Source: Rhizobiaceae bacterium
GTDB taxonomy: Bacteria; Pseudomonadota; Alphaproteobacteria; Rhizobiales; Rhizobiaceae
DNA: 49,849 nucleotides
Reading direction: 5' to 3'
NCBI GenBank assembly: GCA_029212415.1
Contig: JARGOF010000037.1
Coordinates: 1 to 49,849, forward strand
Notes under the pieces: model-generated
Told to the model about the DNA's origin: nothing
What the model saw: the letters and a program-made list of their open reading frames with translations, nothing else
Database searches by the model: none
Part shown: piece by piece, positions 10,161 through 37,590 of the stretch
How positions within the stretch are numbered: position 1 is the stretch's first letter
Layout of the letters: each line of letters starts with the position of its first letter
Program-made: the position numbers and the translations under genes

Positions 10161-10549
10161 CGACTGACAGCGCGCATTTCTGCAGTCGGGCACCGCAATT
10201 GTTTCTTGTCCATATCTACCCCCCCCAAACGAGCCTTCTCATGCTCCACCATTATCGCAGATTCGACGATCGAGAAGGCAATAATTCCTAGTCCGATTGT
10301 ACGGATTATGATAAATTAGCATAGATGATTTCAAAAGAAAATTAGAAAAATGGAGTTTTCAAAAATAAACCGGCAGTCCGGCTTGTTATTTGCGTGCGTG
10401 ATCTTGACCTGCCTGCTCGGTACTCATTAGTGTCCGGCGATACTGCGTTCGAATCGCGTCTTGGCTGTGGTGTCCCGCAGTCCAGCAAGGTTTTGAAGCT
10501 TCTTTCTTTGTCAGGTGATCCTTTTTTCAAAATCTGGAAGGTTATTTTG
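10161..10549. promoter_or_regulatory. divergent intergenic region between livF and the MBL hydrolase gene
   Basis: About 390 bases without a convincing gene. An open frame runs through 10394-10549 in phase with the downstream gene, but its translation has no family resemblance. The region is AT-rich at 10280-10375 and holds the inverted repeat at 10328-10349. It should contain the promoters of both the liv operon and the rightward gene. Confidence 0.6.
10328..10349. promoter_or_regulatory. ATTAGAAAA inverted repeat, site 1
   Basis: Arms ATTTCAAAA and ATTAGAAAA are separated by GAAA. The right arm is identical to those of three other intergenic sites (29778, 33195, 37553). The left arm matches the TTTTCTAAT complement at 6 of 9 positions. 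It lies about 170 bases upstream of livF and 200 upstream of the MBL gene. Candidate operator for an unknown regulator. Confidence 0.5.
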
Positions 10550-11620
10550 GTGCCGCAAACTGTCTTGACCTCACCTCGTACTGTTCTCGAGTTTCCGTTC
10601 GAGTCTGGGCCAGCTTATGGTGATGTGACAGAGGTTGCCGAGGGACTGCTCTGGCTCAGGATTCCACTGCCTTATCTTCTGGATCATGTGAATATCTATC
10701 TTGTCCAGGACGGCGACAGTTGGGTAGTGATTGACACCGGAATTCAGACCGACGAAGCAATCGCAGTGTGGCAACAGTTGTTCGTTGGCCCTCTCAAGGG
10801 GTTTTGCATCAGTCGCGTAATCGCTACGCATTTTCACCCTGACCACATTGGACTGGCAGGGTGGATGTGTGAACGTTTCAACGCGCCGTTATTGACGAGT
10901 TTCTCGACCTATATGGGCAGTCAGGTCATCTCGTTGGCACCGGAAAAAAATAGTCTGCGTCAGTTTTTCGACTTTTACATCAGCCACGGCATGACGGAGG
11001 AAGGGGCTGGAATTGTTGCCATACAGGGCAATGAATATTTACAGTGTGTGTCTGACCTGCCCAGCACATTCCTCAGGTTGATGATGCCCGATACACTGGT
11101 CATTGGAAACCGTTCATTCCGAGTGTTGAGCGGCGATGGGCACGCGCCCGAACAGATCATGCTTTATTGTGCAGAAGAGAAACTCCTGTTCGCAGCGGAT
11201 CAGGTCATTGAGAAGATTTCACCGAATGTGAGCGTTTATGCCGGAGAACCGAAGGGCGATCCGTTAGGTCATTTTTTGCGTTCTCTGCGGCTATTGCGGA
11301 ACGAGATTCCGGACGATGTGCTCGTGCTTCCGGGGCATAGGCGTCCGTTTTATGGGCTGCAATTGCGTTGCGATGAACTTGAAGCCCATCACGAAATTCG
11401 CTGCGACGCAATCCGTTCGGCCTGTGCAGAAGCTCCGCAGTCTGTGGCGGATTTGGTGCCTGTGCTGTTCCCCAGACAACTGGATCCGCACCAGATGAGT
11501 TTCGCATTCACAGAGACACTTGCACATGTAAATCGTCTGGTTCGGCGGGGCGAAATTGAAACCGTGAAGCAAGGCAACAGGCTCGTGAATCAGGTGACAT
11601 CGCAGAATTCAGAAACCTGA
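10550..11620 (+). CDS. metallo-beta-lactamase-fold hydrolase
   Basis: A 356-residue enzyme of the MBL superfamily. The zinc-binding motif HFHPDH is at residues 94-99, with later ligands in SGDGHAPEQ, AADQ and LPGHRRPF, so the dinuclear site appears complete. A C-terminal region of about 100 residues (ELEAHHEIRCDAIRSAC, winged-helix-like) matches the MBL plus helical-tail layout of LACTB2-type proteins. GTG 10550 was chosen because GGAAGG lies 8 bases upstream and upstream codons have no family character. The gene is monocistronic, divergent from the liv operon. Such proteins hydrolyse thioesters, lactones or phosphodiesters; a CoA-thioesterase or lactonase role would fit the context but is inference. 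Confidence 0.85.
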   Translation: MPQTVLTSPRTVLEFPFESGPAYGDVTEVAEGLLWLRIPLPYLLDHVNIYLVQDGDSWVVIDTGIQTDEAIAVWQQLFVGPLKGFCISRVIATHFHPDHIGLAGWMCERFNAPLLTSFSTYMGSQVISLAPEKNSLRQFFDFYISHGMTEEGAGIVAIQGNEYLQCVSDLPSTFLRLMMPDTLVIGNRSFRVLSGDGHAPEQIMLYCAEEKLLFAADQVIEKISPNVSVYAGEPKGDPLGHFLRSLRLLRNEIPDDVLVLPGHRRPFYGLQLRCDELEAHHEIRCDAIRSACAEAPQSVADLVPVLFPRQLDPHQMSFAFTETLAHVNRLVRRGEIETVKQGNRLVNQVTSQNSET

Positions 11621-11839
11621 CGGTGCGGTCTTGCAGGTCACATTCGTCATTCATCCAACAACAGAACGACCGGGTTATCGTGGAAGTGTTCACGTCCTAT
11701 GCGGATGGCTTCCCAACTGGTGTACCCCAATCTTGGCTCGGTGCCGGAACCAACGGTCGGACTATTGGTATACCCAAGCGTACATAATTCAGCAAAGTCC
11801 GCCATTGATTTGGGGCCTGCCTGACCAAAGGAGATTTTC
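11621..11839. other. intergenic spacer
   Basis: 219 bases with no convincing gene, hairpin or repeat. A 52-codon minus-strand frame (11647-11805) is open but resembles nothing I know. Confidence 0.5.
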
Positions 11840-12973
11840 ATGATCAAGTCCGGACCGCTCTCACATCTGCGTATTGTTGAAATGGCCGGGCTTGGCCCCT
11901 GCCCGCTTGCGGGGCAGTTACTCGCCGACTTGGGGGCAGAGGTTATTGTGATTGACCGCAAATCGGGCCGCGGCGACCCGGCGAATATCAACCGGCGGAA
12001 CAAGCAATCGGTTGCGCTTAACCTCAAATCCGACTCCGGTCGCGACGCTGCGATGCGTTTGATCGCACGGGCAGATGCTGTTATCGAGGGGTTCCGGCCC
12101 GGCGTGATGGAGAAATTGGGCCTTGGTCCTGAACCATGCCTCGCACAAAATCCAGGGCTGGTGTTTGGCCGCATGACCGGTTGGGGGCAAACGGGACCAT
12201 TGGCGCATCTGGCGGGGCATGACATCAACTATATGTCTCTTTCCGGGTCGCTGGGCGCCATTGGCGCGGCTGACCGGCCACCGGTGCCACCACTGAACCT
12301 GGTGGCAGATTACGGCGGCGGGACAATGTTCCTGGTTTTCGGTGTACTCGCCGCGCTTTTGGAGCGACAGGTGTCAGGAAAAGGGCAGGTTGTGGACGCG
12401 GCGATTGTCGATGGTGTTCCCGCGATGATGGGCGTGTTCCATTGGATGTTGCACAACGGAGTCTGGGACACGCAACGCGAACACAACATGCTGGACGGTG
12501 GAGCGCCCTATTATCGATGTTACGAGACGAGCGACGGTAAGGCCATATCGGTTGGACCGATCGAACCAAAGTTTTTTGCGGAAATGTGCGAGAAAGCCGG
12601 GTTGGAACATGTTGCGCCAGTTGAGCAGGTGAACAAGCAAAATTGGTCGCGTTTAAGCGCCGACTACGCAAAGGTGTTCCGAACAAAGACGCGCGATGAG
12701 TGGGCTGGGATTTTCGCTGATTGCGACGCCTGTGTGGCGCCAGTTCTGACCTTCGATGAGGTCGAGGCGCATCCGCATAATGCCGAGCGCGGCATCTTTT
12801 TCCGACAGGATGGGGTGATGCAGGCGGCCCCGGCCCCGCGTTTTGATCGCACTCCGGCTGGTCCTGTCCTGTCACCACGCGCGCCGGGTGCGGATTCGGC
12901 TGAAGTTCTTGCCCTTGCAGGGTATGCACCAGAGGAGATCGCGGCGATGAAGGCGGATGGCTCAATCACCTGA
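11840..12973 (+). CDS. CaiB/BaiF family, alpha-methylacyl-CoA racemase-like
   Basis: A 377-residue family III CoA enzyme close to alpha-methylacyl-CoA racemase (AMACR/MCR). Diagnostic residues are His127 and Asp157, in GHDINYMSLSG and ADYGGGT, equal to the His/Asp pair of mycobacterial MCR, and the Glu in YYRCYETSDGK. The presence of GHDINY argues for racemase over formyl-/succinyl-CoA transferase, which use a catalytic Asp near residue 170. Racemases invert the 2-methyl centre of branched acyl-CoAs so that S-specific acyl-CoA dehydrogenases can act, which fits a cluster for isoprenoid-like or alpha-methyl-branched substrates. AAAGGAG precedes the ATG. It converges with the acyl-CoA dehydrogenase at 13009. 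Confidence 0.9.
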   Translation: MIKSGPLSHLRIVEMAGLGPCPLAGQLLADLGAEVIVIDRKSGRGDPANINRRNKQSVALNLKSDSGRDAAMRLIARADAVIEGFRPGVMEKLGLGPEPCLAQNPGLVFGRMTGWGQTGPLAHLAGHDINYMSLSGSLGAIGAADRPPVPPLNLVADYGGGTMFLVFGVLAALLERQVSGKGQVVDAAIVDGVPAMMGVFHWMLHNGVWDTQREHNMLDGGAPYYRCYETSDGKAISVGPIEPKFFAEMCEKAGLEHVAPVEQVNKQNWSRLSADYAKVFRTKTRDEWAGIFADCDACVAPVLTFDEVEAHPHNAERGIFFRQDGVMQAAPAPRFDRTPAGPVLSPRAPGADSAEVLALAGYAPEEIAAMKADGSIT

Positions 12974-13008
12974 CAAGGCGCAGGACAACCCAAGCCCCGT
13001 CGCCAGCA

Positions 13009-14205: not shown

Positions 14206-14602
14206 TTTGGTCCACCGTATAAAGCTCTTTTGACAATAAAGCTCAGTGGGCAATTGTTCGCACAATGTTGTGGATGAGTCCATATAAGAATACGGTCAGA
14301 CGGGTTATTTAAATCTAAAAATGCCGCGGATTCGAGGTTGGAAACGGGTATTTCGAATGTGTTGGGAAAGTCCGAGGCGCATTCTGTTCGTGATTTGAAG
14401 GCATTTTGTGAGGCTGGTAGTAGCAGGTTCAGGCCATGCGCCTGGATTGCATAGGGCTGATTGATTGTCCGATTGAACCATCGCGTCAATCTAGATTGAC
14501 TTCAAGCAAACCTCTATATAAAAATGATGGGCGTCCGGTTTATTTTATCGAGACCTGCTGTAATGGTGTGTCAGTTCAGCCTGCATGAAGGGGGGAACGA
14601 AT
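14206..14602. promoter_or_regulatory. divergent control region of acyl-CoA dehydrogenase and Rieske operon
   Basis: A 397-base AT-rich region with no gene. From left to right it holds ATACGGTCAGACGGGTTATT (14290-14309), similar to a site at 19651; a perfect 16-bp palindrome GTCAATCTAGATTGAC (14485-14500) whose right end forms a TTGACT -35-like box; a TATAAA box about 15 bases further on; and GGCGTCCGGTTT (14530-14541), similar to the palindrome at 27225. Confidence 0.55.
14485..14500. promoter_or_regulatory. perfect 16-bp palindrome, candidate operator
   Basis: GTCAATCTAGATTGAC reads the same on both strands and overlaps a -35-like TTGACT in front of the Rieske dioxygenase operon, a position suited to repression or activation. 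The regulator is not known. Confidence 0.5.
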
Positions 14603-15859: not shown

Positions 15860-16413
15860 CCACTGACATACAAGAGAATGAAGGCCCCGACATTCTGAAG
15901 GAATGGGTCGGGAAGGGCCGGGTTTATGAAAAGACATTCAACCCTGAACTTTACCACGAAGTTCAGCAATTCATTTTTCGCGAAGCGCGGTTGCAGGACA
16001 TCCACGACTATGACGCGTGGGAAGCGCTTTGGACCGATAATGCATTGTATTGGGTGCCTGCAAATGGCACCGACACGGATCCTGAGCGACAGATGTCGTT
16101 GATCTACGACAACCGCTCCCGGATTGCTCTGCGCATACGTCAACTCAAGACCGGGCGGCGGCATTCGCAGACCCCGCCGTCGCAACTTGCCCGCGTGATT
16201 TCGAATTTCGAATTTCTGACGTCATCGAATGACGATATCAAAGTCATGTGCAATGTTCAGATATTCGAGACCAATCTGAGAGGCGATACCATGTGGGCCG
16301 CGCGCAACGAATATACATTGCGTCGGATAGATGGGGTACTCAAGATGGCCTATAAGAAGGTCGTTTTGATCAACAACAATAAAGCGATTTACACGCTGTC
16401 CTTCCTCGTTTGA
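15856..16413 (+). CDS. aromatic-ring-hydroxylating dioxygenase, small (beta) subunit
   Basis: A 185-residue structural subunit with the SnoaL/NTF2-like fold: an N-terminal helix (FIFREARLQDIHDYDAWEALWTDNALYWVP), the DPERQMSLIYDNRSRIALRIRQL segment and the C-terminal strands ending RIDGVLKMAYKKVVLINNN. It supports an alpha3beta3 assembly with the subunit at 14603. The ATGA overlap with the alpha gene means coupled translation. It is followed after 20 bases by a crotonase gene. Confidence 0.94.
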   Translation: MTTDIQENEGPDILKEWVGKGRVYEKTFNPELYHEVQQFIFREARLQDIHDYDAWEALWTDNALYWVPANGTDTDPERQMSLIYDNRSRIALRIRQLKTGRRHSQTPPSQLARVISNFEFLTSSNDDIKVMCNVQIFETNLRGDTMWAARNEYTLRRIDGVLKMAYKKVVLINNNKAIYTLSFLV

Positions 16414-16433
16414 GGTAGGAGAGGGAGGCAAAA

Positions 16434-17249: not shown

Positions 17250-17251
17250 CA

Positions 17252-18007: not shown

Positions 18008-18010
18008 AGA

Positions 18011-18889: not shown

Positions 18890-18912
18890 CAGGAAACGCC
18901 CAAACCAGCCTG

Positions 18913-19515
18913 CTATTCGCCATCGTGTTGCAAGAACCCGCTCAGGAAGACGTCGATCACTTGGTCTGCGTATTCCTGAGGAGTAACCGGTCCCTCGGGG
19001 TCATACCATACATAGGTGTAGTTCAGTGAACCAAGCAGAGACATTGCATAGGATGTGGCGAATTTCGGCGTCATCCGGTGTGACGCGTCAAGCCGGGCAA
19101 GTGCATCCTTCACGATTGAGATGATTTTTCGTTGTGCCGCTCCGATCTCGGTTTTTAGTGGCTGGTCCAATTGGTTCCAATCGTTGAGGAGCACAATTTG
19201 TTCAGCCTTGTTTGCAGCGTTCAACTCCATTATTCCCCGGGCAATTGCCCGCAGGTTCTCCTCTGGGTTCAGCCGCAATTCACCTACAGCTTGAAGTTCG
19301 GTCAGCATGGTTGAGACATGCTCTCCTACGATTTTACCAAGAATCTCTTCTTTTGAATCAAAGTAATGATAAAGCGCCCCACGCGACGATTGGCAGGCGT
19401 TTGCAAGATCTACGATTGTCGCTGTAGAGAAACCCTTTTCCGCGAAAAGTTTTGCCGCGGACCTCAGAATGTTCTCTCGGATTTCGGGATAGTCTTTCGA
19501 TTGTGTGCGGGCCAT
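18913..19515 (-). CDS. TetR/AcrR family transcriptional regulator
   Basis: A 200-residue one-component regulator. The N-terminal helix-turn-helix covers about residues 30-52 (ATIVDLANACQSSRGALYHYF), and the C-terminal ligand domain belongs to the type with ...TYVWYDPEGPVTPQEYADQVIDVFLSG, also seen in the regulator at 41619. This class often senses acyl-CoA esters (family knowledge). Divergent from the CrtI-like gene at 19713, with a candidate operator at 19651-19670, and probably co-transcribed with the esterase. Confidence 0.93.
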   Translation of the reverse strand: MARTQSKDYPEIRENILRSAAKLFAEKGFSTATIVDLANACQSSRGALYHYFDSKEEILGKIVGEHVSTMLTELQAVGELRLNPEENLRAIARGIMELNAANKAEQIVLLNDWNQLDQPLKTEIGAAQRKIISIVKDALARLDASHRMTPKFATSYAMSLLGSLNYTYVWYDPEGPVTPQEYADQVIDVFLSGFLQHDGE

Positions 19516-19650
19516 GATTTTCCGTTCGTTCGTTCTACTAATCTATGCGCGGGTCGCGCGCTACCAGACCAGTTCACCCTCAAAATCGCAAGAAAAAAGT
19601 AGTGGGTACAAAGGGCGCACTTGCAGCAAGGCATTGTTGATGAAATAATA

Positions 19651-25077: not shown

Positions 25078-26235
25078 TTAGTAGCTTCTGGGCAGATCCA
25101 GAATATGTTCGGCAATGAAGGACAGGATGAGGTTGGTTGAAATTGGGGCCACTTGATACAGCCGTGTTTCGCGGAATTTGCGTTCAATGTCATATTCTTC
25201 AGCAAACCCAAATCCACCATGGGTCTGGATGCAGGCATTGGCCGCTTCCCACGATGCATCCGCCGCCAGCATTTTAGCCATATTCGCCTCGCCGCCGCAG
25301 TTCTCGCCCGCCTCGTATTTGCGCACGCCTTCGCGCACCATCAATTCGGCGGCACGCATCGAGGCATAGGATTTGGCAATAGGAAACTGGATGCCTTGAT
25401 TCTGGCCAATGGCACGACCAAAAACCTGCCGATCCTTGGCATAATTCACACCGCGTTCGATGAACCATTTGGCATCACCCACGCATTCCGAAGCGATCAA
25501 CAGCCGTTCTGCGTTCATGCCCGTCAGGATATATTTGAACCCTTTGCCTTCTTCGCCGATCAACGCATCCGCAGGGATCCGCATGTTTTCGAAGAATATC
25601 TCGGTTGAATTGTGGTTCATCATCGAACGGATGGGCGTGATCTTCATCTGATCCGCGGGGATCTTGCGCATATCAATGATGAAGGTTGAAATTCCGTCCG
25701 TCTTTTTGGTCACTTCCTCCCTTTTGCTGGTTCGGGCCAGCAGAATCATCAGGTCGGAATATTCGGCTCTGCTGGTCCATACTTTTTGCCCGTTCACCAC
25801 ATATTCGTCACCCTCGCGTTTGGCGAAGGTGCGGATAGACGTGGTGTCGGTTCCGCTGGTCGGTTCGGTCACACCGAAGGCCTGAAGACGCAATTCGCCA
25901 GCAGCAATGCCGGGAAGGTAGGTTTCTTTTTGCTCCTGAGAACCATGGCGCAGGATGGTCCCCATGACATAAAGCTGGGCGTGACAGGCGGCCCCGTTGC
26001 AGCCCATTTCCTGAATGGTCTCAAGGATCGCCGCCGCAGCACTGAGGCCAAGCCCTGTTCCGCCGAATTCTTCGGGGATCAGCACCGAGAGGTATCCGGC
26101 TTTTGTCAAGGCATCGACGAATTCGGAAGGGTATTTCCGCGCGACGTCCAACTTGCGCCAATATTCGTCAGGGTATCTTGAGCAAAGCTTGCGAACCTCG
26201 TCACGGATCATGTCATATTCGTCGATTGTACTCAT
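25078..26235 (-). CDS. acyl-CoA dehydrogenase (divergent type)
   Basis: A 385-residue FAD enzyme with AFGVTEPTSGTDTTSIRTFA, WTSRAEYSDLMILLART, the FAD-contact loop DRQVFGRAIGQNQGIQFPIA and HGGFGFAEEYDIER. The C-terminal YEGTSEI catalytic Glu is absent (YQVAPISTNLILSFIAEHI); the Glu in MNAERLLIASE could be the base, as in LCAD/IVD. The motif FPIA after the Q marks it as a separate lineage from the four GGGATEVM-type paralogues. It follows the SDR after 52 bases, and the thiolase follows after 12. Confidence 0.92.
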   Translation of the reverse strand: MSTIDEYDMIRDEVRKLCSRYPDEYWRKLDVARKYPSEFVDALTKAGYLSVLIPEEFGGTGLGLSAAAAILETIQEMGCNGAACHAQLYVMGTILRHGSQEQKETYLPGIAAGELRLQAFGVTEPTSGTDTTSIRTFAKREGDEYVVNGQKVWTSRAEYSDLMILLARTSKREEVTKKTDGISTFIIDMRKIPADQMKITPIRSMMNHNSTEIFFENMRIPADALIGEEGKGFKYILTGMNAERLLIASECVGDAKWFIERGVNYAKDRQVFGRAIGQNQGIQFPIAKSYASMRAAELMVREGVRKYEAGENCGGEANMAKMLAADASWEAANACIQTHGGFGFAEEYDIERKFRETRLYQVAPISTNLILSFIAEHILDLPRSY

Positions 26236-26287: not shown

Positions 26288-27193
26288 TCAGATCGGATCC
26301 CAGGTAAAGACATGCTCGGAGCGCTCCAACGGATAGAACTGCGCCGCCATGGCAGGCAGGGCATGGTCCAACACCGTTTCCGCTGTCCAGCCTTCGGACC
26401 TGTGAACGGAACGCACAGGGCGCGGCTGGCTCATCAGCATGATTTCATTGTTACGCACTGTGAAAATCTGCCCCGATGGCGCGCGGTCATCACCTGAAAG
26501 AAGGGATATCGCCAGCGGGGCAATCTTTTCGGGAACCATTTGTTTGAATTTTTCGACGCGTGCGATCTGCTCGGGCGTATCTGTTGGCAGGGAACTGGTC
26601 ATTCGGCTCCAGGCGAATGGGGCAATACAGTTGGATTTGACACCGAAGCGCTCCATGTCGAGTGCGATGGATTTCGACAAGGCCGCAATGCCCATTTTCG
26701 CCGCCATATAGTTGGCTTGACCAAAATTACCGATCAGGGCCGAGGTCGACGTCATATGCACAAATGCGCCGCTGCCTTGCTCTTTGAACAGTTGCGCCGC
26801 CGCGCGGCTGACATTGAACGAACCGTAAAGATGTACCTTCAAAACAGAGTCGAAATTTTCGTAGCTCATCTTGTGAAAAAACGTGTCGCGCAGGATGCCC
26901 GCATTATTGATGACACCGTCGAGCCTTCCGAAAGCTTCACTCGCGGTCTGAATGATCTTCTGGGCCTCGCCCGGTTCCGCCACGCTGTGGGTCGAAGCGA
27001 TTGCCCGCCCGCCTGCCGCTTCAATCTCGTGCACGACCTTGTCGGCTGCATTGAGATCATCGGACTCGCCGCTTAACGATACTCCAATGTCGTTCACAAC
27101 GACACAGGCCCCGGCCATGGCTGCCTGAACAGCCAGAGCTTTGCCAATTCCGCCACCGGCACCGGTAACAATTACAACTTTATTTTTTAACAC
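26288..27193 (-). CDS. SDR, 3-hydroxyacyl-CoA dehydrogenase type (MFE-2-like)
   Basis: A 301-residue dehydrogenase like the N-terminal domain of peroxisomal multifunctional enzyme 2. TGAGGGIGKALA motif, NNAGILRD, Ser in HMTSTSALIG, Tyr-Lys in NYMAAK, and an extended C-terminus after SGQIF (about 60 residues) typical of this group. GTG 27193 follows AGAGGG; upstream codons are not conserved-looking. First gene of the leftward operon. With the MaoC proteins across the promoter it would complete R-specific hydration and oxidation. Confidence 0.9.
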   Translation of the reverse strand: MLKNKVVIVTGAGGGIGKALAVQAAMAGACVVVNDIGVSLSGESDDLNAADKVVHEIEAAGGRAIASTHSVAEPGEAQKIIQTASEAFGRLDGVINNAGILRDTFFHKMSYENFDSVLKVHLYGSFNVSRAAAQLFKEQGSGAFVHMTSTSALIGNFGQANYMAAKMGIAALSKSIALDMERFGVKSNCIAPFAWSRMTSSLPTDTPEQIARVEKFKQMVPEKIAPLAISLLSGDDRAPSGQIFTVRNNEIMLMSQPRPVRSVHRSEGWTAETVLDHALPAMAAQFYPLERSEHVFTWDPI

Positions 27194-27224
27194 TGGAATC
27201 CCTCTTCGTTGAAGCTTATATAAA

Positions 27225-27238
27225 ACCGGACGACCGGT
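27225..27238. promoter_or_regulatory. palindromic operator candidate between divergent operons
   Basis: ACCGG-ACGA-CCGGT is a 5-4-5 inverted repeat. On the minus strand, CGTCCGGTTTTAT resembles GCGTCCGGTTTATT at 14531. It lies about 30 bases upstream of the SDR start and 110 upstream of the MaoC-like gene, so it could control both directions. The form is typical of TetR operators. Confidence 0.5.
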
Positions 27239-27350
27239 ATATGCAACATTCTTTTGCGTCCCAACCAAGGAGATGGGGCAGAAAGTCGAAACTGCAGTGC
27301 TTTAGTCATCGAACAGGCCAGTACAGATGGCAGGATAAAGGGGGGGAAAG

Positions 27351-29710: not shown

Positions 29711-29931
29711 AATCAGATCCCCCGTGGAATATTTGCTTCAAAGGCTGCCGGTCCTCGGCCATCTAGGTCTTGCCACATTATCTAATATGAATTAGAAAAA
29801 ATGAGAGCAGGGAAAAACTGAAATTCGGATGAGCGAAATTTCCATTGATTTCCTTCATCATTTACTAAACGGAGTGGACGGGAAATGGTGCTTTTCAAAA
29901 GCTTCTTCGAAAAATGGAAAGGCCATACAGG
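29711..29931. promoter_or_regulatory. intergenic region upstream of the acyl-CoA ligase
   Basis: 221 bases, AT-rich, containing the best-formed ATTAGAAAA inverted repeat at 29778-29799. No terminator hairpin with a T-run is obvious after the crotonase gene. Confidence 0.55.
29778..29799. promoter_or_regulatory. ATTAGAAAA inverted repeat, site 2
   Basis: Arms TTATCTAAT and ATTAGAAAA around ATGA; 8 of 9 positions pair. About 130 bases before the ligase start at 29932. Same arm length and 4-base spacer as sites at 10328, 33195 and 37553. Confidence 0.6.
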
Positions 29932-31557
29932 ATGATACTTCCAAAGAAATCAACCTATGAAGATATCCGAGACAGTTTTTCGTGGGATCTGCCGGAAATC
30001 TATAATGCCGCTGGGGATCTCTGCGACCGTCATGTTGGACGAGCCAATCCTGCATTGGTTTTTGACACCGACGCAGGTGTCGAAACCTATAGCTTTGCCG
30101 AACTGCAAAGCGATGCCAATCGGTTCGCGGGTTTCCTGACCTCTTGCGGCATAACCAAGGGCGCGATCATTGGAATTGTCGCCCAGCCAGCCTATGCCGT
30201 GGCTGTGACGCATATCGGCGCGTGGAAATCTGGTGTGATCACAAGCCCAATCGCGACGCTTTTTGCAGAGGACGCCCTGGTTTATCGTTTCAAAAGCGGC
30301 GATATCAGGCTCGTTATTACGGACCCCGAAAACGAGGGCAAGGTAAAGGCCGCAGCCGCACAATGCCCGTCGGTCGATCAGGTGTTGGTCTTTTCCCGTG
30401 ATATGCCAAAAGGTGGGCCGCTCTGGGATGCTTTGCTGGATATGCCCACGAGTTTTGAAAATGTCCAGACCCGCAGCAACGATCCAATTTCGCTTAACTT
30501 TACTTCCGGGACGACGGGAATGCCAAAGGGCGTGTTGGCGCCGCATTCGCATGTACTGGGACAGGGTGCGGCGATGGAGTTTCTCTATGACTTTCCCGAA
30601 CCGGGCGATGTCATGTGGTCCCCTGCTGATTGGGCGTGGTTGGCGGGTCAGATGTGCACGCTCGCAGCTGGTCTTTTCATGGGTATGACAGTGGTTGCGC
30701 GCCCACGCGCCGGTTTCGATGCTGCTGACGCATTCAGGATTCTTGCACAACATAAAGTTACCCATACATTGTTGATCCCGACCATGATGAAACTGATGCG
30801 TCAGATTCCCATTGCGGATCAGCGGCGGGAGGACCTGAAAATCAAGGTGGTATCGACTGGCGGAGAGCCCTGTGGAGCCGAGTTGTATCGGTGGGTGGCA
30901 GACGTTTTCGAGGCGCCTTTGAACGAAACCTTTGGGCAGACCGAATGCGCTACCATGATCTGCAACAATAGATCGGTGATGGATGCCCCGTTTGGATGTT
31001 TGGGAAAGCCGACGCCTGGCCTGCATGCCGTCGTCTTGGGCTCTGACGGGCAGGAAGCGCCACGGGGTGAGATCGGAGAGATTGCTGCACACTTGCCGCA
31101 CCCGATCATTTTTACCAAATATCATGGTGATCCGACAGCAACGGCAGACAAGAAGTTGGGCAATTGGCTGATGACGGGCGATCTGGCGCGCTGTGACAAG
31201 GACGGGTACTTTTGGTATGTCGGTCGTGCAGATGATGTAATCACCAGTTCAGGTTACAGAATTGGGCCGAGTGAAGTCGAAGATGCCCTGCTCGGGCATC
31301 CGTTAGTCGCCATTGCCGCCGTCATTGGCTTGCCGGATCCTGAGCGAACAGAGCTTGTTTCGGCATATATTCAGCTTGTCGACGCGGAAGCCGGTTCTGA
31401 TGCTCTCAAGGAAGAGTTGAAGCTTTTTGTGCGGGATCGACTGGCCCGGCATGAAATTCCGCGGATCATTGAATTTGTTGACAAACTCCCGATGACGGCA
31501 ACCGGCAAGGTGATGCGCAAATCCCTGCGCACTCAGGTCCTGGCGGAAATAACCTGA
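29932..31557 (+). CDS. acyl-CoA synthetase (AMP-forming; acetyl/medium-chain type)
   Basis: A 541-residue adenylate-forming ligase closer to the AcsA/ACSM branch than to FadD. Motifs: FTSGTTGMPKGVLAPH (about residue 195), WSPADWAWLAG, NETFGQTEC, TGDLARCDKDGYFWYVGRADDVITSSGYRIGP and the catalytic Lys in TATGKVMRKSL near the end. ATG 29932 has GGAAAGG upstream. Monocistronic; its stop is 12 bases from the converging tetR stop. Likely activates a short or medium acid before beta-oxidation. Confidence 0.93.
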   Translation: MILPKKSTYEDIRDSFSWDLPEIYNAAGDLCDRHVGRANPALVFDTDAGVETYSFAELQSDANRFAGFLTSCGITKGAIIGIVAQPAYAVAVTHIGAWKSGVITSPIATLFAEDALVYRFKSGDIRLVITDPENEGKVKAAAAQCPSVDQVLVFSRDMPKGGPLWDALLDMPTSFENVQTRSNDPISLNFTSGTTGMPKGVLAPHSHVLGQGAAMEFLYDFPEPGDVMWSPADWAWLAGQMCTLAAGLFMGMTVVARPRAGFDAADAFRILAQHKVTHTLLIPTMMKLMRQIPIADQRREDLKIKVVSTGGEPCGAELYRWVADVFEAPLNETFGQTECATMICNNRSVMDAPFGCLGKPTPGLHAVVLGSDGQEAPRGEIGEIAAHLPHPIIFTKYHGDPTATADKKLGNWLMTGDLARCDKDGYFWYVGRADDVITSSGYRIGPSEVEDALLGHPLVAIAAVIGLPDPERTELVSAYIQLVDAEAGSDALKEELKLFVRDRLARHEIPRIIEFVDKLPMTATGKVMRKSLRTQVLAEIT

Positions 31558-31569
31558 TGTTTGCCTGCG

Positions 31570-32229
31570 TCAGGTGGCGGGGGGCGGTGCAATCAGCCCG
31601 TTAAGGATCATTTCGGTAAAATCATGCGCAACGCTTGCGGCAGGACCGTTTTCCGGCTTGTACCACTCTACAGACCAACTCATGGCGCCAAGAATGAACA
31701 TACGGATCGCCGAAAGGTTCAGGTCTTGACGCAACTGGCCGTTTGCGGCGGCATCACGCAGTAATTTGCGCCAGACCTCGCCGTATTTTGCTTCGTTTGA
31801 ACTATGCAACGCCTGAATATGTTTCGGTACCTGGCCATTCAGCTTTGTATTGGCTCGCGCATATTCACTACGTTCAATCAGGCACCGCAAATGAACATCG
31901 ATGGCTGTTTTCAAGCGGGTCAGGTTGTCGGTGCCCTCGGGCAATTCATCCAAACGGGCCATGACAGTCCTGTAGGTATAGCTTACACCCCGCGCCATTA
32001 CCTCAGCGGTCAGTTCCTCTCGTGAGGAAAAATGATAGTAGATACTGCCCGTTTTGATCTCGGCAACCTTGGCGATATCGGACAGGCGGGTACGCGAAAA
32101 CCCCTTGCGGCTGAATACAAAAGCTGCCGCATCCAGGATACGCTCACGCGTTTTTGCTGATTTGTTGCCTGGGATATCTGTAGGTTCCCCTTTCTCTTCC
32201 TCGTCGAGCGGCGTACCTGTGTTATCCAT
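31570..32229 (-). CDS. TetR/AcrR family transcriptional regulator
   Basis: A 219-residue regulator with helix-turn-helix TRLSDIAKVAEIKTGSIYYHFSSREELTAEVM after a longer, charged N-terminus (LDEEEKGEPTDIPGNKSAKTRERILDAA). ATG 32229 has AGAAGGG upstream; an ATG ten codons before lacks a site. It follows the SDR gene by 50 bases on the same strand, so it is probably autoregulated through the 33.0-33.27 kb divergent promoter, opposite the TRAP operon. Confidence 0.92.
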   Translation of the reverse strand: MDNTGTPLDEEEKGEPTDIPGNKSAKTRERILDAAAFVFSRKGFSRTRLSDIAKVAEIKTGSIYYHFSSREELTAEVMARGVSYTYRTVMARLDELPEGTDNLTRLKTAIDVHLRCLIERSEYARANTKLNGQVPKHIQALHSSNEAKYGEVWRKLLRDAAANGQLRQDLNLSAIRMFILGAMSWSVEWYKPENGPAASVAHDFTEMILNGLIAPPPAT

Positions 32230-32279
32230 TTGGACCGTTATCCCTTCTGTGCATTCCATGCGCGCATCGCGGTATCGGA

Positions 32280-33041
32280 TCAGACCGCATATCCCCCGTC
32301 TGCCATAATATGTTGTCCGGTCACAAATGACGAGTCCTCCGAGAGCAAAAACCCGACCAATTTGGCCACCTCTGTCGACGTGCCAAACCGGCGCAGGGCA
32401 ATATTTTCGCGGGATTTTTCAAGGAATTTCTGATTGAATGATCCGGCATCAACCAGCGGTCCGAACATGCCGTCTTCAAGCAATCCAACACCAACGGCAT
32501 TGGCGCGAACCCCGAACTTACCCTCCTCAACTGCGACCCCTCTGGCAAAAGTCTCGATCGCGGATTTTGGCCCGACCGACAGAATGTCCGTGGACGCATA
32601 TCGTCCCAGTGCGGCGGTCGTTATCGCCACCATTGCGCCTTTGGTTTTGCGGAGATGCGGGATGGCTGCATGGATCACGTTATATGCAGCAAAAGTATCA
32701 GACTCAAAGGTCTTGCGCAGCAATTTTGGTGTCAGGTTGCTCATATGGACCATTTCAATAAATGGACCGTGGGCGGTGACAAGTGAGTGGATACCATCAT
32801 GGTCCTTGGCCAATTGGTCCACGGTTGTGCTCACGGCTTCATCATCACGCAGGTCGAGTTCAATTGCGATAGCCACACCCCCGGCTTTGCTCAATTCCTC
32901 TGCCAAAGCTTCGGCTTTTTCGCGGTTGCGTAGATAGGTAAAAGCCACTCCCTTGCCGCGTTCAGAAAGCTCCCTTGCAATTGCGGCGCCGATCCCGCCG
33001 CTGCCGCCAGTTATCAGTGCGATGCCGTTGTGATCTGTCAT
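32280..33041 (-). CDS. SDR-family protein lacking the catalytic tyrosine
   Basis: A 253-residue protein with a clear SDR cofactor motif (TGGSGGIGAAIA) and Rossmann strands, and the C-terminal end TGQHIMADGGYAV. In the active-site region, GRYASTDILSVGPKSAIETFA, the Lys is kept (Lys159) but the YxxxK Tyr is Ser155, the YX6K position is Ile, and the catalytic Ser position reads Thr-Thr. Tyr148 is nearby but out of register. It may be an atypical reductase (FabI/FabL-like shift) or a non-catalytic protein. AAGGA precedes ATG 33041. Divergent from dctP and upstream of tetR. Confidence 0.85.
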   Translation of the reverse strand: MTDHNGIALITGGSGGIGAAIARELSERGKGVAFTYLRNREKAEALAEELSKAGGVAIAIELDLRDDEAVSTTVDQLAKDHDGIHSLVTAHGPFIEMVHMSNLTPKLLRKTFESDTFAAYNVIHAAIPHLRKTKGAMVAITTAALGRYASTDILSVGPKSAIETFARGVAVEEGKFGVRANAVGVGLLEDGMFGPLVDAGSFNQKFLEKSRENIALRRFGTSTEVAKLVGFLLSEDSSFVTGQHIMADGGYAV

Positions 33042-33194
33042 GTCGTCCTTTATCCACCACCTGTTTCGGGGTATGCAAAAATGCAAACCATTTTTCGAAT
33101 CATAAATCGAATTTCTGAACCCCTATGCTTGAAGCTGATATCCCGGAGCCATTTATAGGGTAGTTGTTTCACGTTGCCTCTTGCAGGTCAAAGT

Positions 33195-33216
33195 TTTTCT
33201 TATTAAGATTAGAAAA
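33195..33216. promoter_or_regulatory. ATTAGAAAA inverted repeat, site 3
   Basis: Arms TTTTCTTAT and ATTAGAAAA around TAAG; 8 of 9 positions pair. It lies 50 bases before the dctP start and about 155 before the divergent SDR start. Confidence 0.6.
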
Positions 33217-33266
33217 TAGCGGCTCGCAGAAAGTGCCGATAACGCATTCGTAATGGGAGGAATACT

Positions 33267-34292
33267 ATGAGTTTTTCAATGAAATTAGCCGGGGTTGTCG
33301 CGGGGCTTACGTTGCTGGCAGGGCAGGCGAGCGCCGAAACGACACTTCGCTATTCCAACTGGTTGCCACAGGGGCATGTCATTCTCGAGAATGCCATCAA
33401 CCCCTTTATCGAGGAAGTGCAGGAAAAAACTGAAGGCCGCATTTCTATTGAGACTCTACCAAAAGTTATCGGTACGGTGCCTGGGCAATATGATGTTGCG
33501 GTGGATGGTCTGGCTGATATTGCCTTTATCATCATGGGCTACACACCCGGTCGTTTCCCGCTAAGCGAGGTGGTGGAATTGCCATTCGTCGGCAACGATC
33601 CTGAGGCAATCAGTATCGCATACTGGCGTGTCTATCATGAGCAGCTTGAAAAATACGGTGAGTTCAAGGGTGTCAAGTTGCTCAGCCTGTCGGTTGCCGC
33701 ACCGTCGCATATTGTAACACGCAATGCCCCTGTCGAGGAATTCAGCGACCTGGCCGGCCTGAAAATGCGCAATCCAATTGCCAGTTTCATTCCAGCAGCC
33801 GAGGCCATGGGCACTGTACCGATCAACAAGCCTATCTCTGAAGTTTATGAACTTGCTTCCAGCGGCGTCGTCGACGGAGCCTTTGCCCCTTTGGACTCGC
33901 AGAAAAGCTTCAAGCTCATGGATGTGTTGCCTTATATGACCATTGTTGAGGGTGGTTTGTTCAGCCCCGGTTTGGCCTTGGTGATGAATCTGGAGAGCTG
34001 GAATGCTCTTAGCCCCGAAGATCAGCAGATCGTCATGATGGCGGCCGGCGAAAAAATGGGCGGACGGATTGGTGCTGGATACGCTGCCGCGGATAAAGTT
34101 GCGCGGACCGAAATGGAAGCAAAAGATGGGGCAATTGTACAAATGGCCAGTCCTGAGTTGATGGCCGCATTGCATGAAAAACTCGACTTTGTTCGCCAAG
34201 CATGGATTGAAAAGGCTAGGGAGGCCGGCGTTGAAAATCCAGGGGCCATTGCAGATGCGCTGCGCGATACCGTTGGTTTGTTGCAGGAATGA
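33267..34292 (+). CDS. dctP: TRAP transporter periplasmic solute-binding protein (DctP family)
   Basis: A 341-residue periplasmic binding protein. Signal peptide MSFSMKLAGVVAGLTLLAGQASA with cleavage before ETTLRYSNW. The DctP fold shows in the KIRN-type core GLKMRNPIASFIPAAEAMGTVPINKPISEVYELASSGVVDGAF, whose Arg normally binds the ligand carboxylate. GGGAGG 6 bases before ATG. First gene of dctPQM. Substrate is probably an organic acid; identity unknown. Confidence 0.94.
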   Translation: MSFSMKLAGVVAGLTLLAGQASAETTLRYSNWLPQGHVILENAINPFIEEVQEKTEGRISIETLPKVIGTVPGQYDVAVDGLADIAFIIMGYTPGRFPLSEVVELPFVGNDPEAISIAYWRVYHEQLEKYGEFKGVKLLSLSVAAPSHIVTRNAPVEEFSDLAGLKMRNPIASFIPAAEAMGTVPINKPISEVYELASSGVVDGAFAPLDSQKSFKLMDVLPYMTIVEGGLFSPGLALVMNLESWNALSPEDQQIVMMAAGEKMGGRIGAGYAAADKVARTEMEAKDGAIVQMASPELMAALHEKLDFVRQAWIEKAREAGVENPGAIADALRDTVGLLQE

Positions 34293-34810
34293 GTGAAGAT
34301 AATCGCTCTGTCAGACCGGCCCGAGGAAAACCTCGGGCCGGTTTGCTGCGTGTGTTGAACTGGCTGTCGGGCGCTGCCTTGCTGAGCATGATGGTCCTCA
34401 TGACGCTGGACGTTATGGGCAGGGAACTGCTGGGTCGCCCGCTGGTTGGCGCGCTTGAGCTGATAGAACTGACGCTTGTCGTTGCAGTATTTGCCGCCCT
34501 CCCGATGGCCTCCTGGCGAGAGGACCACATTGTTGCTGATCTGTTCGATCCGATCCTCAGCCCCTTTGTGAAGCGGATATTGCGTGCTTTCGGCTGTTTG
34601 TTGGCCGCGATTGTGTTCGCGATTGTTTTGCCCACGCTCTGGAAGCTGGCCAAGCGAAGCGAATCTTTTGGCGATACAACCCCGCAACTCGGTCTTCCGC
34701 TATCCTGGGTCATATTTGTAATCTGCGCCTTGTGCGCAATAACGTCACTGACGTTTCTCGTGCGAGCGGTGGTTGTGCTGCGTGATGCGCCGGAAAAAAA
34801 TTGGGTTTGA
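34289..34810 (+). CDS. dctQ: TRAP transporter small permease (DctQ family)
   Basis: A 173-residue membrane protein with four transmembrane helices and the DctQ signature MTLDVMGRELLGRPLVGALELIE. The ATG at 34289 overlaps the dctP stop (ATGA). A strong hairpin (34315-34342) lies in what would be codons 9-18, a charged Arg/Pro stretch without family resemblance, so an internal start near GTG 34352 is an alternative. Confidence 0.9.
   Translation: MSEDNRSVRPARGKPRAGLLRVLNWLSGAALLSMMVLMTLDVMGRELLGRPLVGALELIELTLVVAVFAALPMASWREDHIVADLFDPILSPFVKRILRAFGCLLAAIVFAIVLPTLWKLAKRSESFGDTTPQLGLPLSWVIFVICALCAITSLTFLVRAVVVLRDAPEKNWV
34315..34342 (+). terminator. strong stem-loop between dctP and dctQ
   Basis: A perfect 12-bp stem (ACCGGCCCGAGG / CCTCGGGCCGGT) with AAAA loop, followed by TTTG. 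It is GC-rich and just after the dctP stop, so it probably protects the dctP message or partly terminates, giving more binding protein than permease. The short T-run argues against full termination. Confidence 0.75.
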
Positions 34811-34814
34811 CCAA

Positions 34815-36107
34815 ATGACTTTGGCCGCGATCGGTTTTCTGTTTGTATTTGCCTTGATATTTGCCCGTGTTCCGGTAGCGATTGCTCTCATAACCGTCGG
34901 AACTGCGGGCATGGCCTGGACTCTTGGCAGCAAGCTGGCGCTGGCTTCCTTGGCGCTGACGTTCAAGGAAACAACACTGACCTACACGCTGTCAGTCATT
35001 CCGCTTTTCATCCTGATGGGCAATATTGTGGGGCGTAGCGGGCTTGCCGAGGAATTATACGACGCAGCGCGTGCGGTTGTCGGTCGCTTTCGGGGCGGGT
35101 TGGCCTTTGCAACGATCCTGTCCTGCGGTGGGTTCGCTGCAGTGTCTGGGTCCAGTGTCGCCACGGCTGTCACCATGTCACAGGTGGCCGTGCCGGAGAT
35201 GCGAAAACGCGGGTATTCTGACCGACTGGCAACCGGTGCTGTCGCTGCAGGGGGGACTTTGGGTATTCTGATTCCGCCGAGTGTCATTATGGTTATCTAT
35301 GGCGTCGCGACGGAAACCCATATTGGCAAGCTGTTTTCCGCTGGCCTGATTCCGGGCTTGTTGGGGGTTGTCGGCTATTGTCTGGCGATTGCATGGACGG
35401 TTTGGCGAGATCCCGTATCTGCACCTGCTGGCGTTCGCGTTCCGCTGGAGGAGGCGCTGCGTGCATTCGTCAAGGTCTGGGCCGTATTGTTGTTGTTCGT
35501 GGTCGTGGTTGGCGGCATTTATGGCGGCATCTTCACGCCGACTGAAGCCGCGGGTATCGGGGCCTCGTGCAGCTTGCTGATCTCGATCCTGAGGCGAAAG
35601 CTGTCATGGTCCATCTTCGGCCGCATTATTGTTGAGAGCACAACAACCACCGCCAGTATCTTTGTCATTCTTATCGGCGCAACCGTCTTTGCCGAATTCT
35701 TGAATTTCACCGGCGCCCACGAGAGCGTGCTCGCCGTGGTGCGCGACGGAGAATTGGCGCCGTGGATGGTTATTGCGATAATTCTTGCGATCTATCTGGT
35801 GCTTGGTTGTGTGCTGGAAAGCCTGTCTATGATGCTGCTGACCATTCCATTGTTTTTCCCGGTCGTCATGGGGCTGGGATACGATCCCGTTTGGTTTGGG
35901 ATCATAGTCGTGATGGTGGTCGAGATCGGGCTGATCACGCCACCATTCGGCATGAACCTGTTTGTTCTGCGATCTGTGGTGACAGATGTTTCGTTGATGA
36001 CGCTCTATCGTGGCGCGGTTCCCTTTGTTGTGGCGGATTTGGTTCGTCTTGTGTTGATCGCGGCCTTTCCAGTGCTGGCGCTGTTCCTGCCGGACCTGCT
36101 GTTTTGA
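34815..36107 (+). CDS. dctM: TRAP transporter large permease (DctM family)
   Basis: A 430-residue, about 12-helix membrane protein that carries the substrate path. Features: FARVPVAIALITVG at the N-terminus, GIYGGIFTPTEAAGIGA in the middle, LGCVLESLSMMLLTIPLFFPVV and ITPPFGMNLFVLRSV near the C-terminus, all DctM hallmarks. It begins 4 bases after the dctQ stop. Its 3' end converges with the acyl-CoA dehydrogenase, separated by a bidirectional hairpin. Confidence 0.95.
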   Translation: MTLAAIGFLFVFALIFARVPVAIALITVGTAGMAWTLGSKLALASLALTFKETTLTYTLSVIPLFILMGNIVGRSGLAEELYDAARAVVGRFRGGLAFATILSCGGFAAVSGSSVATAVTMSQVAVPEMRKRGYSDRLATGAVAAGGTLGILIPPSVIMVIYGVATETHIGKLFSAGLIPGLLGVVGYCLAIAWTVWRDPVSAPAGVRVPLEEALRAFVKVWAVLLLFVVVVGGIYGGIFTPTEAAGIGASCSLLISILRRKLSWSIFGRIIVESTTTTASIFVILIGATVFAEFLNFTGAHESVLAVVRDGELAPWMVIAIILAIYLVLGCVLESLSMMLLTIPLFFPVVMGLGYDPVWFGIIVVMVVEIGLITPPFGMNLFVLRSVVTDVSLMTLYRGAVPFVVADLVRLVLIAAFPVLALFLPDLLF

Positions 36108-36130
36108 TCACCAAAGGCGATTGTTTTGGG

Positions 36131-36153
36131 AAAGCCGCTTAGGTGCGGCTTTT
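36131..36153. terminator. bidirectional terminator between dctM and acyl-CoA dehydrogenase
   Basis: An 8-bp stem, AAAGCCGC / GCGGCTTT, with loop TTAGGT. It has a T-run on both strands (CTTTT on plus, GCTTTC on minus). It overlaps the last codons of the leftward gene and ends both convergent units. Confidence 0.75.
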
Positions 36154-37338
36154 GATCATTTCGCGGGCGATAACGATCTGTTGGATCTGGCTTGTTCCCT
36201 CATAGATTCGCAGCAAACGCACATCGCGATAGAATCGCTCGATCTGACTGTCGGCCATGTATCCGGCTCCGCCAAAAACTTGCACAGCTCTATCCGCAAC
36301 CCGGCCCGCCATTTCGGTGGCAAAGTACTTTGAAATTGCGGCGTCCATCACCGCCTTGCCTTGTTGATCGTTCAGTTGTGCGGTTGCGCGCGTCAGGGCA
36401 CGTGCTGCCGCAATCTCGGTCTGGCTGTCAGCAAGCAGCGCCTGGACCAACTGGTGTTCGCAGATCGGTTTGCCAAATTGATGGCGTTCCATTGCATAGG
36501 CGGTTGCCATGTCAAGCATGCGTTGAGCCGTCCCTACTGCCATGGCGGAAATGTGGATACGGCCCCTGTCGAGCACCTTCATCGCGGTGCGGAAGCCCTG
36601 GTTGACCCTTTCTGGCCCGCCGATGATCGCCGAAGCGGGCAGGCGCACATTGTCCAGAATGACATCGCAGGTTTTGGTGCCGCGCTGACCCATTTTACGG
36701 TCAACCGGCCCCAGGTGGATGCCGGGTGTGTCCGCAGGCAGAATAAAGGCCGTCACGCCGCGCGCGCCGTCTTCAATATTTCCGGTTCGCGCCAGCAGCG
36801 TAAAGATATTTGCGCGGGTGGCATTGGTAATGAACCTCTTCGTGCCGCTGATAACATAGTCATCACCATCGCGGACCGCGCGAGTGCGGATATGTGCAGC
36901 ATCCGATCCGTTGTCTGGCTCGGTCAGGGCGAAAGAGGCGATCAGTTCACCTGATGCAAGGCCGGGCAGATATGTCTCTTTCTGTTCGGCGGTACCATCG
37001 AAAAATATGCCCTTTGCTCCAATGCCAACATTGGTGCCAAGCAGCGAACGAAATGCCAGGGAGGCATAGCAAAGCCTTTCGACCAGGCGTGCTTCTTGCG
37101 CCGTGTTCAGTCCCAACCCGCCATATTCGGGCGGTGTACTGAGGCCGAATAGCCCCATATCGCGCAGTTCCTCAATGATCTCGGCGGGGATGTCGTCCTC
37201 TTCCTCGACGCGGGTTTCGTTGGGGATCAGCCGTTCGGCAACAAATCGGTCCACGGCGTCAAGAAGCTGCAGGAATGTTTCTTCGTCAACCGCGTCTGTG
37301 GCAGAGATAATTGGCTTCTGGTCATCATGTGTGGGCAT
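36139..37338 (-). CDS. acyl-CoA dehydrogenase (short/medium-chain type)
   Basis: A 399-residue FAD enzyme of the classical SCAD/MCAD type: FALTEPDNGSDAAHIRTRA, FITNATRANIFTLLART, the FAD contact RHQFGKPICEHQLVQ, VFGGAGYMADSQIERFYRDVRLLRIYEGTSQIQQ. The catalytic Glu of YEGTS is present, unlike the five other acyl-CoA dehydrogenases in the window. AAGGACAG precedes the ATG. Monocistronic, divergent from the BVMO operon. Confidence 0.94.
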   Translation of the reverse strand: MPTHDDQKPIISATDAVDEETFLQLLDAVDRFVAERLIPNETRVEEEDDIPAEIIEELRDMGLFGLSTPPEYGGLGLNTAQEARLVERLCYASLAFRSLLGTNVGIGAKGIFFDGTAEQKETYLPGLASGELIASFALTEPDNGSDAAHIRTRAVRDGDDYVISGTKRFITNATRANIFTLLARTGNIEDGARGVTAFILPADTPGIHLGPVDRKMGQRGTKTCDVILDNVRLPASAIIGGPERVNQGFRTAMKVLDRGRIHISAMAVGTAQRMLDMATAYAMERHQFGKPICEHQLVQALLADSQTEIAAARALTRATAQLNDQQGKAVMDAAISKYFATEMAGRVADRAVQVFGGAGYMADSQIERFYRDVRLLRIYEGTSQIQQIVIAREMIKSRT

Positions 37339-37590
37339 TCGATCTGTCCTTGCTGTTGCAGCGCTGTCGCTTTTGATAACAAGCGCCGCAAAAAATTGAA
37401 AGTAATTTAGAAAAAATCATATGCAATGCATTACCCAAGTTGGATATATCTCTAAATGCAGTCAAAATTTGCGGCCTATATGCAGCGAATTGACGATAAA
37501 TCTGAGAATCTGCAAAAATCCTCCAAGATGCCTTGACCACGTAGGGTCTCGGTTTTAAAACCTTGATTAGAAAAATGGGACAGGCTAAAT
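37339..37590. promoter_or_regulatory. divergent control region of acyl-CoA dehydrogenase and BVMO operon
   Basis: 252 AT-rich bases with no gene. They hold ATTAGAAAA at 37566-37574 and a second near-match TTTAGAAAA at 37406-37414. Confidence 0.5.
37553..37574. promoter_or_regulatory. ATTAGAAAA inverted repeat, site 4
   Basis: Arms TTTTAAAAC and ATTAGAAAA around CTTG; 6 of 9 positions pair. It ends 16 bases before the BVMO start, close enough to block initiation or to be an operator inside the transcript start region. Confidence 0.45.

What the first reader, a model, noticed from the sequence alone, without database searches (positions are those of the whole stretch)
10328..37574. A shared 9-4-9 inverted repeat (TTTTCTAAT-N4-ATTAGAAAA) in four promoters: a hidden regulon
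Four intergenic regions contain the 9-mer ATTAGAAAA, each preceded at exactly 4 bases by a left arm related to its reverse complement: 10328-10349 (liv operon/MBL), 29778-29799 (acyl-CoA ligase), 33195-33216 (TRAP operon/SDR-tetR) and 37553-37574 (BVMO operon/acyl-CoA dehydrogenase). Arm pairing is 6/9, 8/9, 8/9 and 6/9. The four targets include both transporters, a ligase and the BVMO, i.e. the uptake and entry steps. The motif does not look like the GC-rich TetR palindromes here, and no non-TetR regulator is encoded in the window, so the controller probably lies elsewhere.
Basis: partly seen in the sequence, partly recalled or inferred. Interest (0 to 1): 0.75.

Follow-up and report, generated by a model that had tools for sequence, protein, structure and literature searches.

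The report
Conserved operator of local TetR regulon
The repeated mirror-image DNA motif is real and marks the same promoters in three bacterial genera, most likely as the docking site of a repressor encoded in the same gene cluster: an ordinary kind of switch with an operator sequence for which we found no earlier report.

Summary
In detail: ATTAGAAAA occurs exactly four times in the window (0.17 expected), at the stated coordinates with the stated arm pairing. It is not chance. In two other genera of the family (G105, G290) the palindrome stands before orthologues of the same genes: TRAP 3 of 3 genomes, BVMO 3 of 3, metallo-beta-lactamase (MBL) 3 of 3, acyl-CoA ligase 2 of 2 found. Genome-wide at up to 3 mismatches, 2 of 2 places in G105 and 2 of 2 in G290 are these promoters. 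All 11 sites share ATTAGAA in the gene-facing arm. Predicted sigma70 promoters facing these genes place their -10 box in the palindrome more strongly than any of 2000 flank shuffles, with no such signal on the opposite strand, so the site looks like a repressor operator. Binding by this TetR is inferred. Known kind (KstR2/EdcR-like), apparently new operator.

The parts
10328..10349 (+). Operator, MBL/liv intergenic region (ATTTCAAAAgaaaATTAGAAAA)
   Evidence: orthologous sites L060:11068 (G105) and L185:3468 (G290)
29778..29799 (+). Operator upstream of the acyl-CoA ligase (TTATCTAATatgaATTAGAAAA)
   Evidence: L060:5246 in G105
33195..33216 (+). Operator between SDR-tetR and TRAP operons (TTTTCTTATtaagATTAGAAAA)
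   Evidence: L060:1505 and L186:1879
37553..37574 (+). Operator upstream of BVMO (TTTTAAAACcttgATTAGAAAA)
   Evidence: L059:17655 and L184:4284
29892..29913 (.). Weaker second site near the ligase start (TTTTCAAAAgcttCTTCGAAAA)
   Evidence: permuted-matrix p 1 of 1000; no counterpart found in G105
33092..33113 (.). Weaker second site next to the SDR-tetR start
   Evidence: p 12 of 1000; counterparts L060:1626 (10 of 1000) and L186:1771 (13 of 1000)
37393..37414 (.). Possible second site on the acyl-CoA dehydrogenase side
   Evidence: p 94 of 1000 alone; aligned block in G290 (L184:4425, 2 of 1000)
31570..32259 (-). T2: TetR-family protein, proposed controller
   Evidence: PF00440 and PF17932 above cut-off; orthologues 69% in G105 and 72% in G290
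32280..33086 (-). SDR, first gene of the SDR-tetR operon
   Evidence: 67% in G105 and 68% in G290
33267..36107 (+). TRAP transporter operon DctP-DctQ-DctM (target)
29914..31557 (+). Acyl-CoA ligase (target); the true start may be the ATG at 29932
37591..39033 (+). Flavin monooxygenase of BVMO type (target, first gene of an operon)
   Evidence: PF00743; 69% in G105 and 71% in G290
10394..11620 (+). MBL-fold hydrolase (target)
   Evidence: PF00753; 61% and 66% orthologues
4657..10193 (-). liv-type ABC transporter genes with an acyl-CoA ligase; possible target on the other side of site 10328
   Evidence: next to the site in G290 too, not in G105

Best explanation
The four palindromes are operators of one dedicated, cluster-local regulon. 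The TetR-family protein encoded at 31570-32259 (T2) binds TTTTCTAAT-N4-ATTAGAAAA as a dimer or pair of dimers, covers the -10 box or start region of the TRAP, ligase, BVMO and probably MBL promoters, and represses them; it probably also damps its own SDR-tetR operon from the shared intergenic region, which carries a second, weaker site. An early pathway intermediate, most likely a CoA thioester, would release it and switch on uptake, CoA activation and the monooxygenase step together. Shown: the sites, their conservation in three genera, their concentration on this cluster, overlap with predicted promoters, co-occurrence of T2. Inferred: that T2 is the binder, repression, autoregulation and the ligand.
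For: Orthologous promoters in G105 and G290 carry the palindrome. Genome-wide at up to 3 mismatches 2 of 2 places in G105 and 2 of 2 in G290 are these promoters, reversed control 0 and 0. A matrix from the window's sites alone puts four of these foreign sites first among 131,641 bases. Predicted promoters facing the genes have their -10 in the palindrome: 0 of 2000 flank shuffles reach the summed score, opposite strand 792 of 2000. T2 at over 40% identity occurs in exactly 3 of 394 family genomes, and the motif lies beside these 3 and none of 27 other fetched TetR relatives. The two other window TetRs have no match at E<=1e-15 in G105. No other regulator near the G105 sites in 40 of 49 ORFs scanned, apart from a GntR about 20 kb away.
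Against: No binding or expression data. Three of the 11 sites (TRAP in G105 and G290, MBL in G105) have 4-5 mismatches and were found by looking in the orthologous promoters, not by the 3-mismatch scan. In G105 the ligase site is about 400 bp from the ligase and nearer the divergent abhydrolase. The promoter signal is absent for MBL in the window and G105 and weak for window TRAP. Only three genomes, one an incomplete draft. 30 other family genomes have isolated 2-mismatch matches whose surroundings I did not inspect. A regulator outside the stretches held, present in all three genomes, is not excluded.
Confidence: 0.75

Rival explanations
1. Same regulon and operators, but the binder is a regulator encoded elsewhere in the genome, for example a MarR, IclR or GntR protein.
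For: No direct proof that T2 binds; only part of each genome around the clusters was examined. The core motif also has 3 places outside the window in the own genome.
Against: The motif is concentrated on the cluster in all three genomes; in relatives without the cluster hits are near the reversed control, 99 against 87 over 60 genomes by my tally. T2 is the regulator that travels with the sites.
Confidence: 0.17
2. The binder is one of the other two TetR proteins of the window (18913-19515 or 41619-42236).
For: Same Pfam C-terminal family (TetR_C_24).
Against: No match to their joint profile in G105, which has all four sites; 41619-42236 has its own GC-rich palindrome; no ATTAG site in front of either.
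Confidence: 0.03
3. The block is a core promoter element or site for an activator, not a repressor operator.
For: The -10 boxes lie inside it, and the gene-facing arm is better conserved than the distal arm.
Against: The predicted -10 lies at different places in the palindrome (position 4 at BVMO, 10 at TRAP, 11 or 16 at the ligase), and a dyad with 7-8 of 9 paired arms at 6 of 11 sites is not a feature of a plain promoter.
Confidence: 0.04
4. Chance AT-rich matches in intergenic DNA.
For: Two of the four sites pair in only 6 of 9 positions.
Against:: orthologous promoters in two other genera, found genome-wide.
Confidence: 0.01

Closest known systems
KstR2 regulon of actinobacteria (PMC3068626, passages seen)
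   Same: TetR repressor of a catabolic cluster for a CoA-activated cyclic substrate; palindromes in intergenic regions of its own cluster, including its own promoter; KstR2 is second by fold to the T2 model.
   Different: Operator AnCAAGnnCTTGnT (14 bp) against a 22-bp AT-rich 9-4-9 palindrome; T2 about 23% identical to KstR2 in the structural alignment.
EdcR of Caenibius tardaugens (PMC8700777, passages seen)
   Same: Alphaproteobacterial TetR repressor in its catabolic cluster; palindrome over the -10 box of several operons, weaker at its own promoter, conserved in a second genus.
   Different: Palindrome TnnCnnTACnAnTnGTAnnGnnA; EdcR and T2 were not compared by sequence here.
PfmR, FadR and AibR (acyl-CoA related TetR proteins with solved structures)
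   Same: Fold matches to the T2 model; FadR-stearoyl-CoA and AibR-isovaleryl-CoA complexes are among the hits.
   Different: 17-23% identity for these hits; ligand binding by T2 untested.

Membership tests
TetR family (T2 protein) | N-terminal TetR helix-turn-helix domain | tested here: met
   PF00440, 52.1 bits against cut-off 24
TetR family (T2 protein) | All-helical C-terminal regulatory domain and TetR fold | tested here: met
   PF17932 56.4 bits against 26.4; model pLDDT 88, hits to TetR structures
KstR2/EdcR-like local TetR regulon | Shared palindrome at several operons of the cluster that encodes the regulator | tested here: met
KstR2/EdcR-like local TetR regulon | A copy at the regulator's own promoter region | tested here: met
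   33195 and weaker 33092 in the SDR-tetR/TRAP intergenic region; same in G105 and G290
KstR2/EdcR-like local TetR regulon | Operator overlaps the core promoter | tested here: met
   (sum over 11 sites, by predicted promoters); not met singly for MBL in the window and G105
KstR2/EdcR-like local TetR regulon | The regulator binds the palindrome and represses | not testable with these tools
   needs gel shift and reporter assays
KstR2 proper | Operator AnCAAGnnCTTGnT | tested here: not met
   none of the 11 sites listed has CAAGnnCTTG; motif from passages of PMC3068626
Named NCBIfam TetR equivalogs (FadR, KstR, PsrA, AcuR and others) | Score above the curated cut-off | tested here: not met
   all 20 listed matches of T2 are below their cut-offs; best ScbR_bind_reg 90.1 against 150
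CoA-thioester-responsive TetR | CoA thioester releases the protein from DNA | not testable with these tools
   fold similarity only

The most novel reading that the evidence does not exclude
The regulator works through paired operators: a strong promoter-overlapping site plus a weaker one 103-160 bp away in the same intergenic region, seen at the TRAP/SDR-tetR region of all three genera (13 of 1000 or better each) and less firmly at BVMO (0.094, 0.106 and 0.002). It would bridge them by DNA looping, with the invariant ATTAGAA half-site always facing the strong promoter, so that repression is polar.
Probability: 0.15. Interest if true: 0.5.

Novelty: new member of a known kind. Interest (0 to 1): 0.38.

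Why it matters
It gives a specific, testable operator and controller for a rare, uncharacterised catabolic cluster (BVMO, Rieske oxygenase, TRAP and ABC uptake, CoA ligases), says which operons act together, and offers a repressor-promoter pair; finding its inducer would point to the unknown substrate. It also shows that a motif spotted by eye in one window can be confirmed by genome-wide hits in other genera.

Tried and rejected
Chance: rejected. Global regulator: not supported. The other two window TetRs: rejected because G105 lacks them. Core promoter element only: disfavoured because the -10 sits at different places in the palindrome. A mobile repeat was considered and not tested; orthologous promoters make it unlikely.

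Plasmid searches gave no close ligase (best about 43%) or T2 (best about 42%). A Pseudorhodobacter turbinis plasmid region holds relatives of three window genes at 63-68% (36139-37338, 25078-26235, 26288-27268) but no TRAP or BVMO hit at E<=1e-20, a 27% ligase relative, and no site at up to 4 mismatches. A class-wide ligase search found the own genome only (1 of 385). An alignment of the TetR 18913-19515 promoter with G290 showed no palindrome that I could name.

Literature: the letter strings ATTAGAAAA, TTTTCTAAT and CTAATNNNNATTAG occur in 366 papers; the third string was in none of the 30 listed, none of the 30 looked by title like a report of this operator, and the other 336 were not seen. 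Searches for such a cluster or regulon gave 4 and 1 papers, none on it by title and start of abstract. Of, 12 of 117 papers were listed and passages of two were read.

Weak points: the secondary-site test gives 5 of 11 regions at 13 of 1000 or better, 2 near 0.1 and 4 with none; permuted matrices do not fully control for base order. Promoter hexamer frequencies were recalled, not fetched. I chose the 11 sites by similarity and wrote them in gene orientation, so the invariant ATTAGAA is in part a result of that choice.
Full report
Observation. ATTAGAAAA occurs exactly four times in the window on both strands, 0.17 expected. In the own genome (5,840,053 bases; the window is all of contig C53) the full pattern at up to three mismatches has six places, four in the window; the reversed control has one. 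Of the other two, C33:2418 overlaps the start of an ORF and C73:27360 lies in a short gap between ORFs. With the core TCTAAT-N4-ATTAGA at one mismatch the own genome has five places, two in the window and three outside (the one on C21 was not looked at). Because the motif was read from the window, I turned to other genomes.

G105. The TRAP solute-binding protein has one close orthologue (77%) among 199 family genomes, in G105, another genus. Of its 146,706-base contig I read the last 54,707 bases. They carry orthologues of the TRAP, SDR, TetR, ligase, BVMO, MBL and further genes, with the palindrome before the BVMO (L059:17655), TRAP (L060:1505), ligase (L060:5246) and MBL (L060:11068). The TRAP and MBL sites have 5 and 4 mismatches. 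The ligase site is about 400 bp from the ligase, past a small ORF, and nearer a divergent abhydrolase. Genome-wide in G105 the full pattern at three mismatches gives two places and the core at one mismatch three, all on these promoters; the control has 0 and 1.

G290. This third genus (draft, 83% complete) was found through its 72% TetR orthologue. Its TRAP promoter has GAATCTTATTATGATTAGAAAA, 4 mismatches. A genome-wide search at three mismatches gave two places, control 0: one between a BVMO (71%) and relatives of window genes 26288-27268 (80%) and 36139-37338 (78% over 111 residues), the other between liv-type transporter genes and an MBL (66%). These came from a DNA pattern alone, and both landed on expected promoters. 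No ligase passed E<=1e-160 in G290.

Strength. A matrix from the window's four sites only, run over 131,641 bases of other loci, ranks G105 ligase, G290 BVMO, G105 BVMO and G290 MBL first to fourth; the own genome's C73 and C33 places come fifth and seventh, G290 TRAP sixth, G105 MBL eighth, G105 TRAP eleventh. On L059+L060, 0 of 200 column-permuted matrices reached the first to fourth scores; the fourth is a second site near the SDR, not the TRAP site. In the 11 sites, which I chose by similarity and wrote in gene orientation, positions 14-20 (ATTAGAA) and 8 (A) are invariant; arm pairing is 8, 4, 5, 6, 7, 7, 8, 8, 6, 7, 6 of 9. Alignments show the block CTTATTAnGATTAGAAAATRG in three genera at TRAP and CTAAT-N4-ATTAGAAAA at the ligase; the window and G105 MBL and BVMO sites were not brought into full register by the pairwise aligner.

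Position. With a simple sigma70 model (recalled frequencies) the top promoter facing the gene has its -10 starting inside the palindrome at 9 of 11 sites; at G105 TRAP it ties with one elsewhere, at window MBL it lies outside. Examples: TTGTCA-17-TATGAT (G290 TRAP), TTGACC-17-TAAAAC (window BVMO). Keeping the palindrome and shuffling the 60 upstream bases, the summed score 108.7 exceeds all 2000 shuffles (mean 72.8, sd 6.5); on the opposite strand 792 of 2000 reach the observed sum. Singly, 6 of 11 sites have p<=0.025, window TRAP 0.173, window ligase 0.085, and MBL 0.462, 0.638 and 0.095. A protein on these sites would block RNA polymerase, so repression is the likely mode.

Second sites. With primary sites masked, the best remaining matches in the 11 intergenic regions sum to 88.3 against 19.9 (sd 14.9) for permuted matrices, 0 of 1000. 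Singly, 5 of 11 are at 13 of 1000 or better (window 29892 and 33092, L060:1626, L186:1771, L184:4425); window 37393 and L059:17812 are near 0.1; four show none. The TRAP/SDR-tetR region has one in all three genomes, 103-121 bp from the primary site, on the SDR side.

Controller. Pfam scans of 50 stretches of the window found three regulators, all TetR. T2 (31570-32259) is in an operon with the SDR, starting in the TRAP intergenic region. Among 394 family genomes 34 have a relative at E<=1e-20, and only the own genome, G290 (72%) and G105 (69%) exceed 40%. In the 30 loci fetched (best match of 30 of the 34 genomes) the motif is beside these three and none of the other 27. A joint profile of the other two TetRs finds nothing at E<=1e-15 in G105 and only an orthologue of 18913-19515 (62%) in G290; 41619-42236 has its own palindrome at 42469. 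Of 49 ORFs listed for the G105 stretch, 40 were scanned with Pfam: the only transcription-factor family was a GntR on L058, about 20 kb from the nearest site (a serine-recombinase fragment also lies on L058). The other nine are eight orthologues of window genes, T2 among them, and one ORF across a locus boundary. The T2 model (mean pLDDT 88) is nearest to PfmR and KstR2, with DarR, FadR and AibR further down; a CoA-thioester inducer is inference.

Contrary results. At two mismatches 33 of 394 family genomes have a match; 30 of them lack a close T2, some are small genomes with several hits, and I did not look at their surroundings. All five such hits in the three T2 genomes are on cluster promoters. 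In 61 relatives at three mismatches the hits are 105 against 88 for the reversed control by my tally, own genome included.

Comparison. KstR2 (passages of PMC3068626) and EdcR (passages of PMC8700777) are precedents for a local TetR repressor with palindromes at several operons, the latter over the -10 box. Their operators differ from this one, and I found no report of it in the searches made. Verdict: real regulon, known kind, apparently new operator; controller most likely T2.

Noticed in passing
42469-42490: Near-perfect GC-rich palindrome ACCGACCGACGCGTCGGTCGAT between TetR 41619-42236 and an acyl-CoA dehydrogenase; probably that TetR's own operator, single copy in the window.
   Followed up: partly
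14485-14500: Perfect 16-bp palindrome GTCAATCTAGATTGAC between an acyl-CoA dehydrogenase and the Rieske oxygenase genes; no second copy within 3 mismatches in the window. Its binder is unknown.
   Followed up: partly
38984-39736: The BVMO operon holds a partial ABC ATPase match (PF00005 positions 80-136 only), while G105 has a full ABC transporter set in the same operon: looks like the remnant of a lost transporter.
   Followed up: no
48698-49294: Phage-integrase-family gene near the contig end, with a phage-type central domain; with the patchy distribution of the cluster this suggests horizontal transfer.
   Followed up: no
L143 (NZ_CP039965.1 1297000-1343000): Pseudorhodobacter turbinis plasmid carries relatives (63-68%) of the acyl-CoA dehydrogenases 36139-37338 and 25078-26235 and the SDR 26288-27268 without TRAP, BVMO or the operator.
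   Followed up: partly
L059:11927-14083: In G105's BVMO operon one 718-aa ORF joins an ABC permease domain to a strictosidine-synthase/SMP-30-like domain, an unusual fusion if the frame is right.
   Followed up: no
L213 (G290 C119): TetR 18913-19515, its neighbouring abhydrolase, SDR and amine-oxidase-like genes are also kept together in G290 (62-76% identity), so that part of the cluster is shared too.
   Followed up: partly
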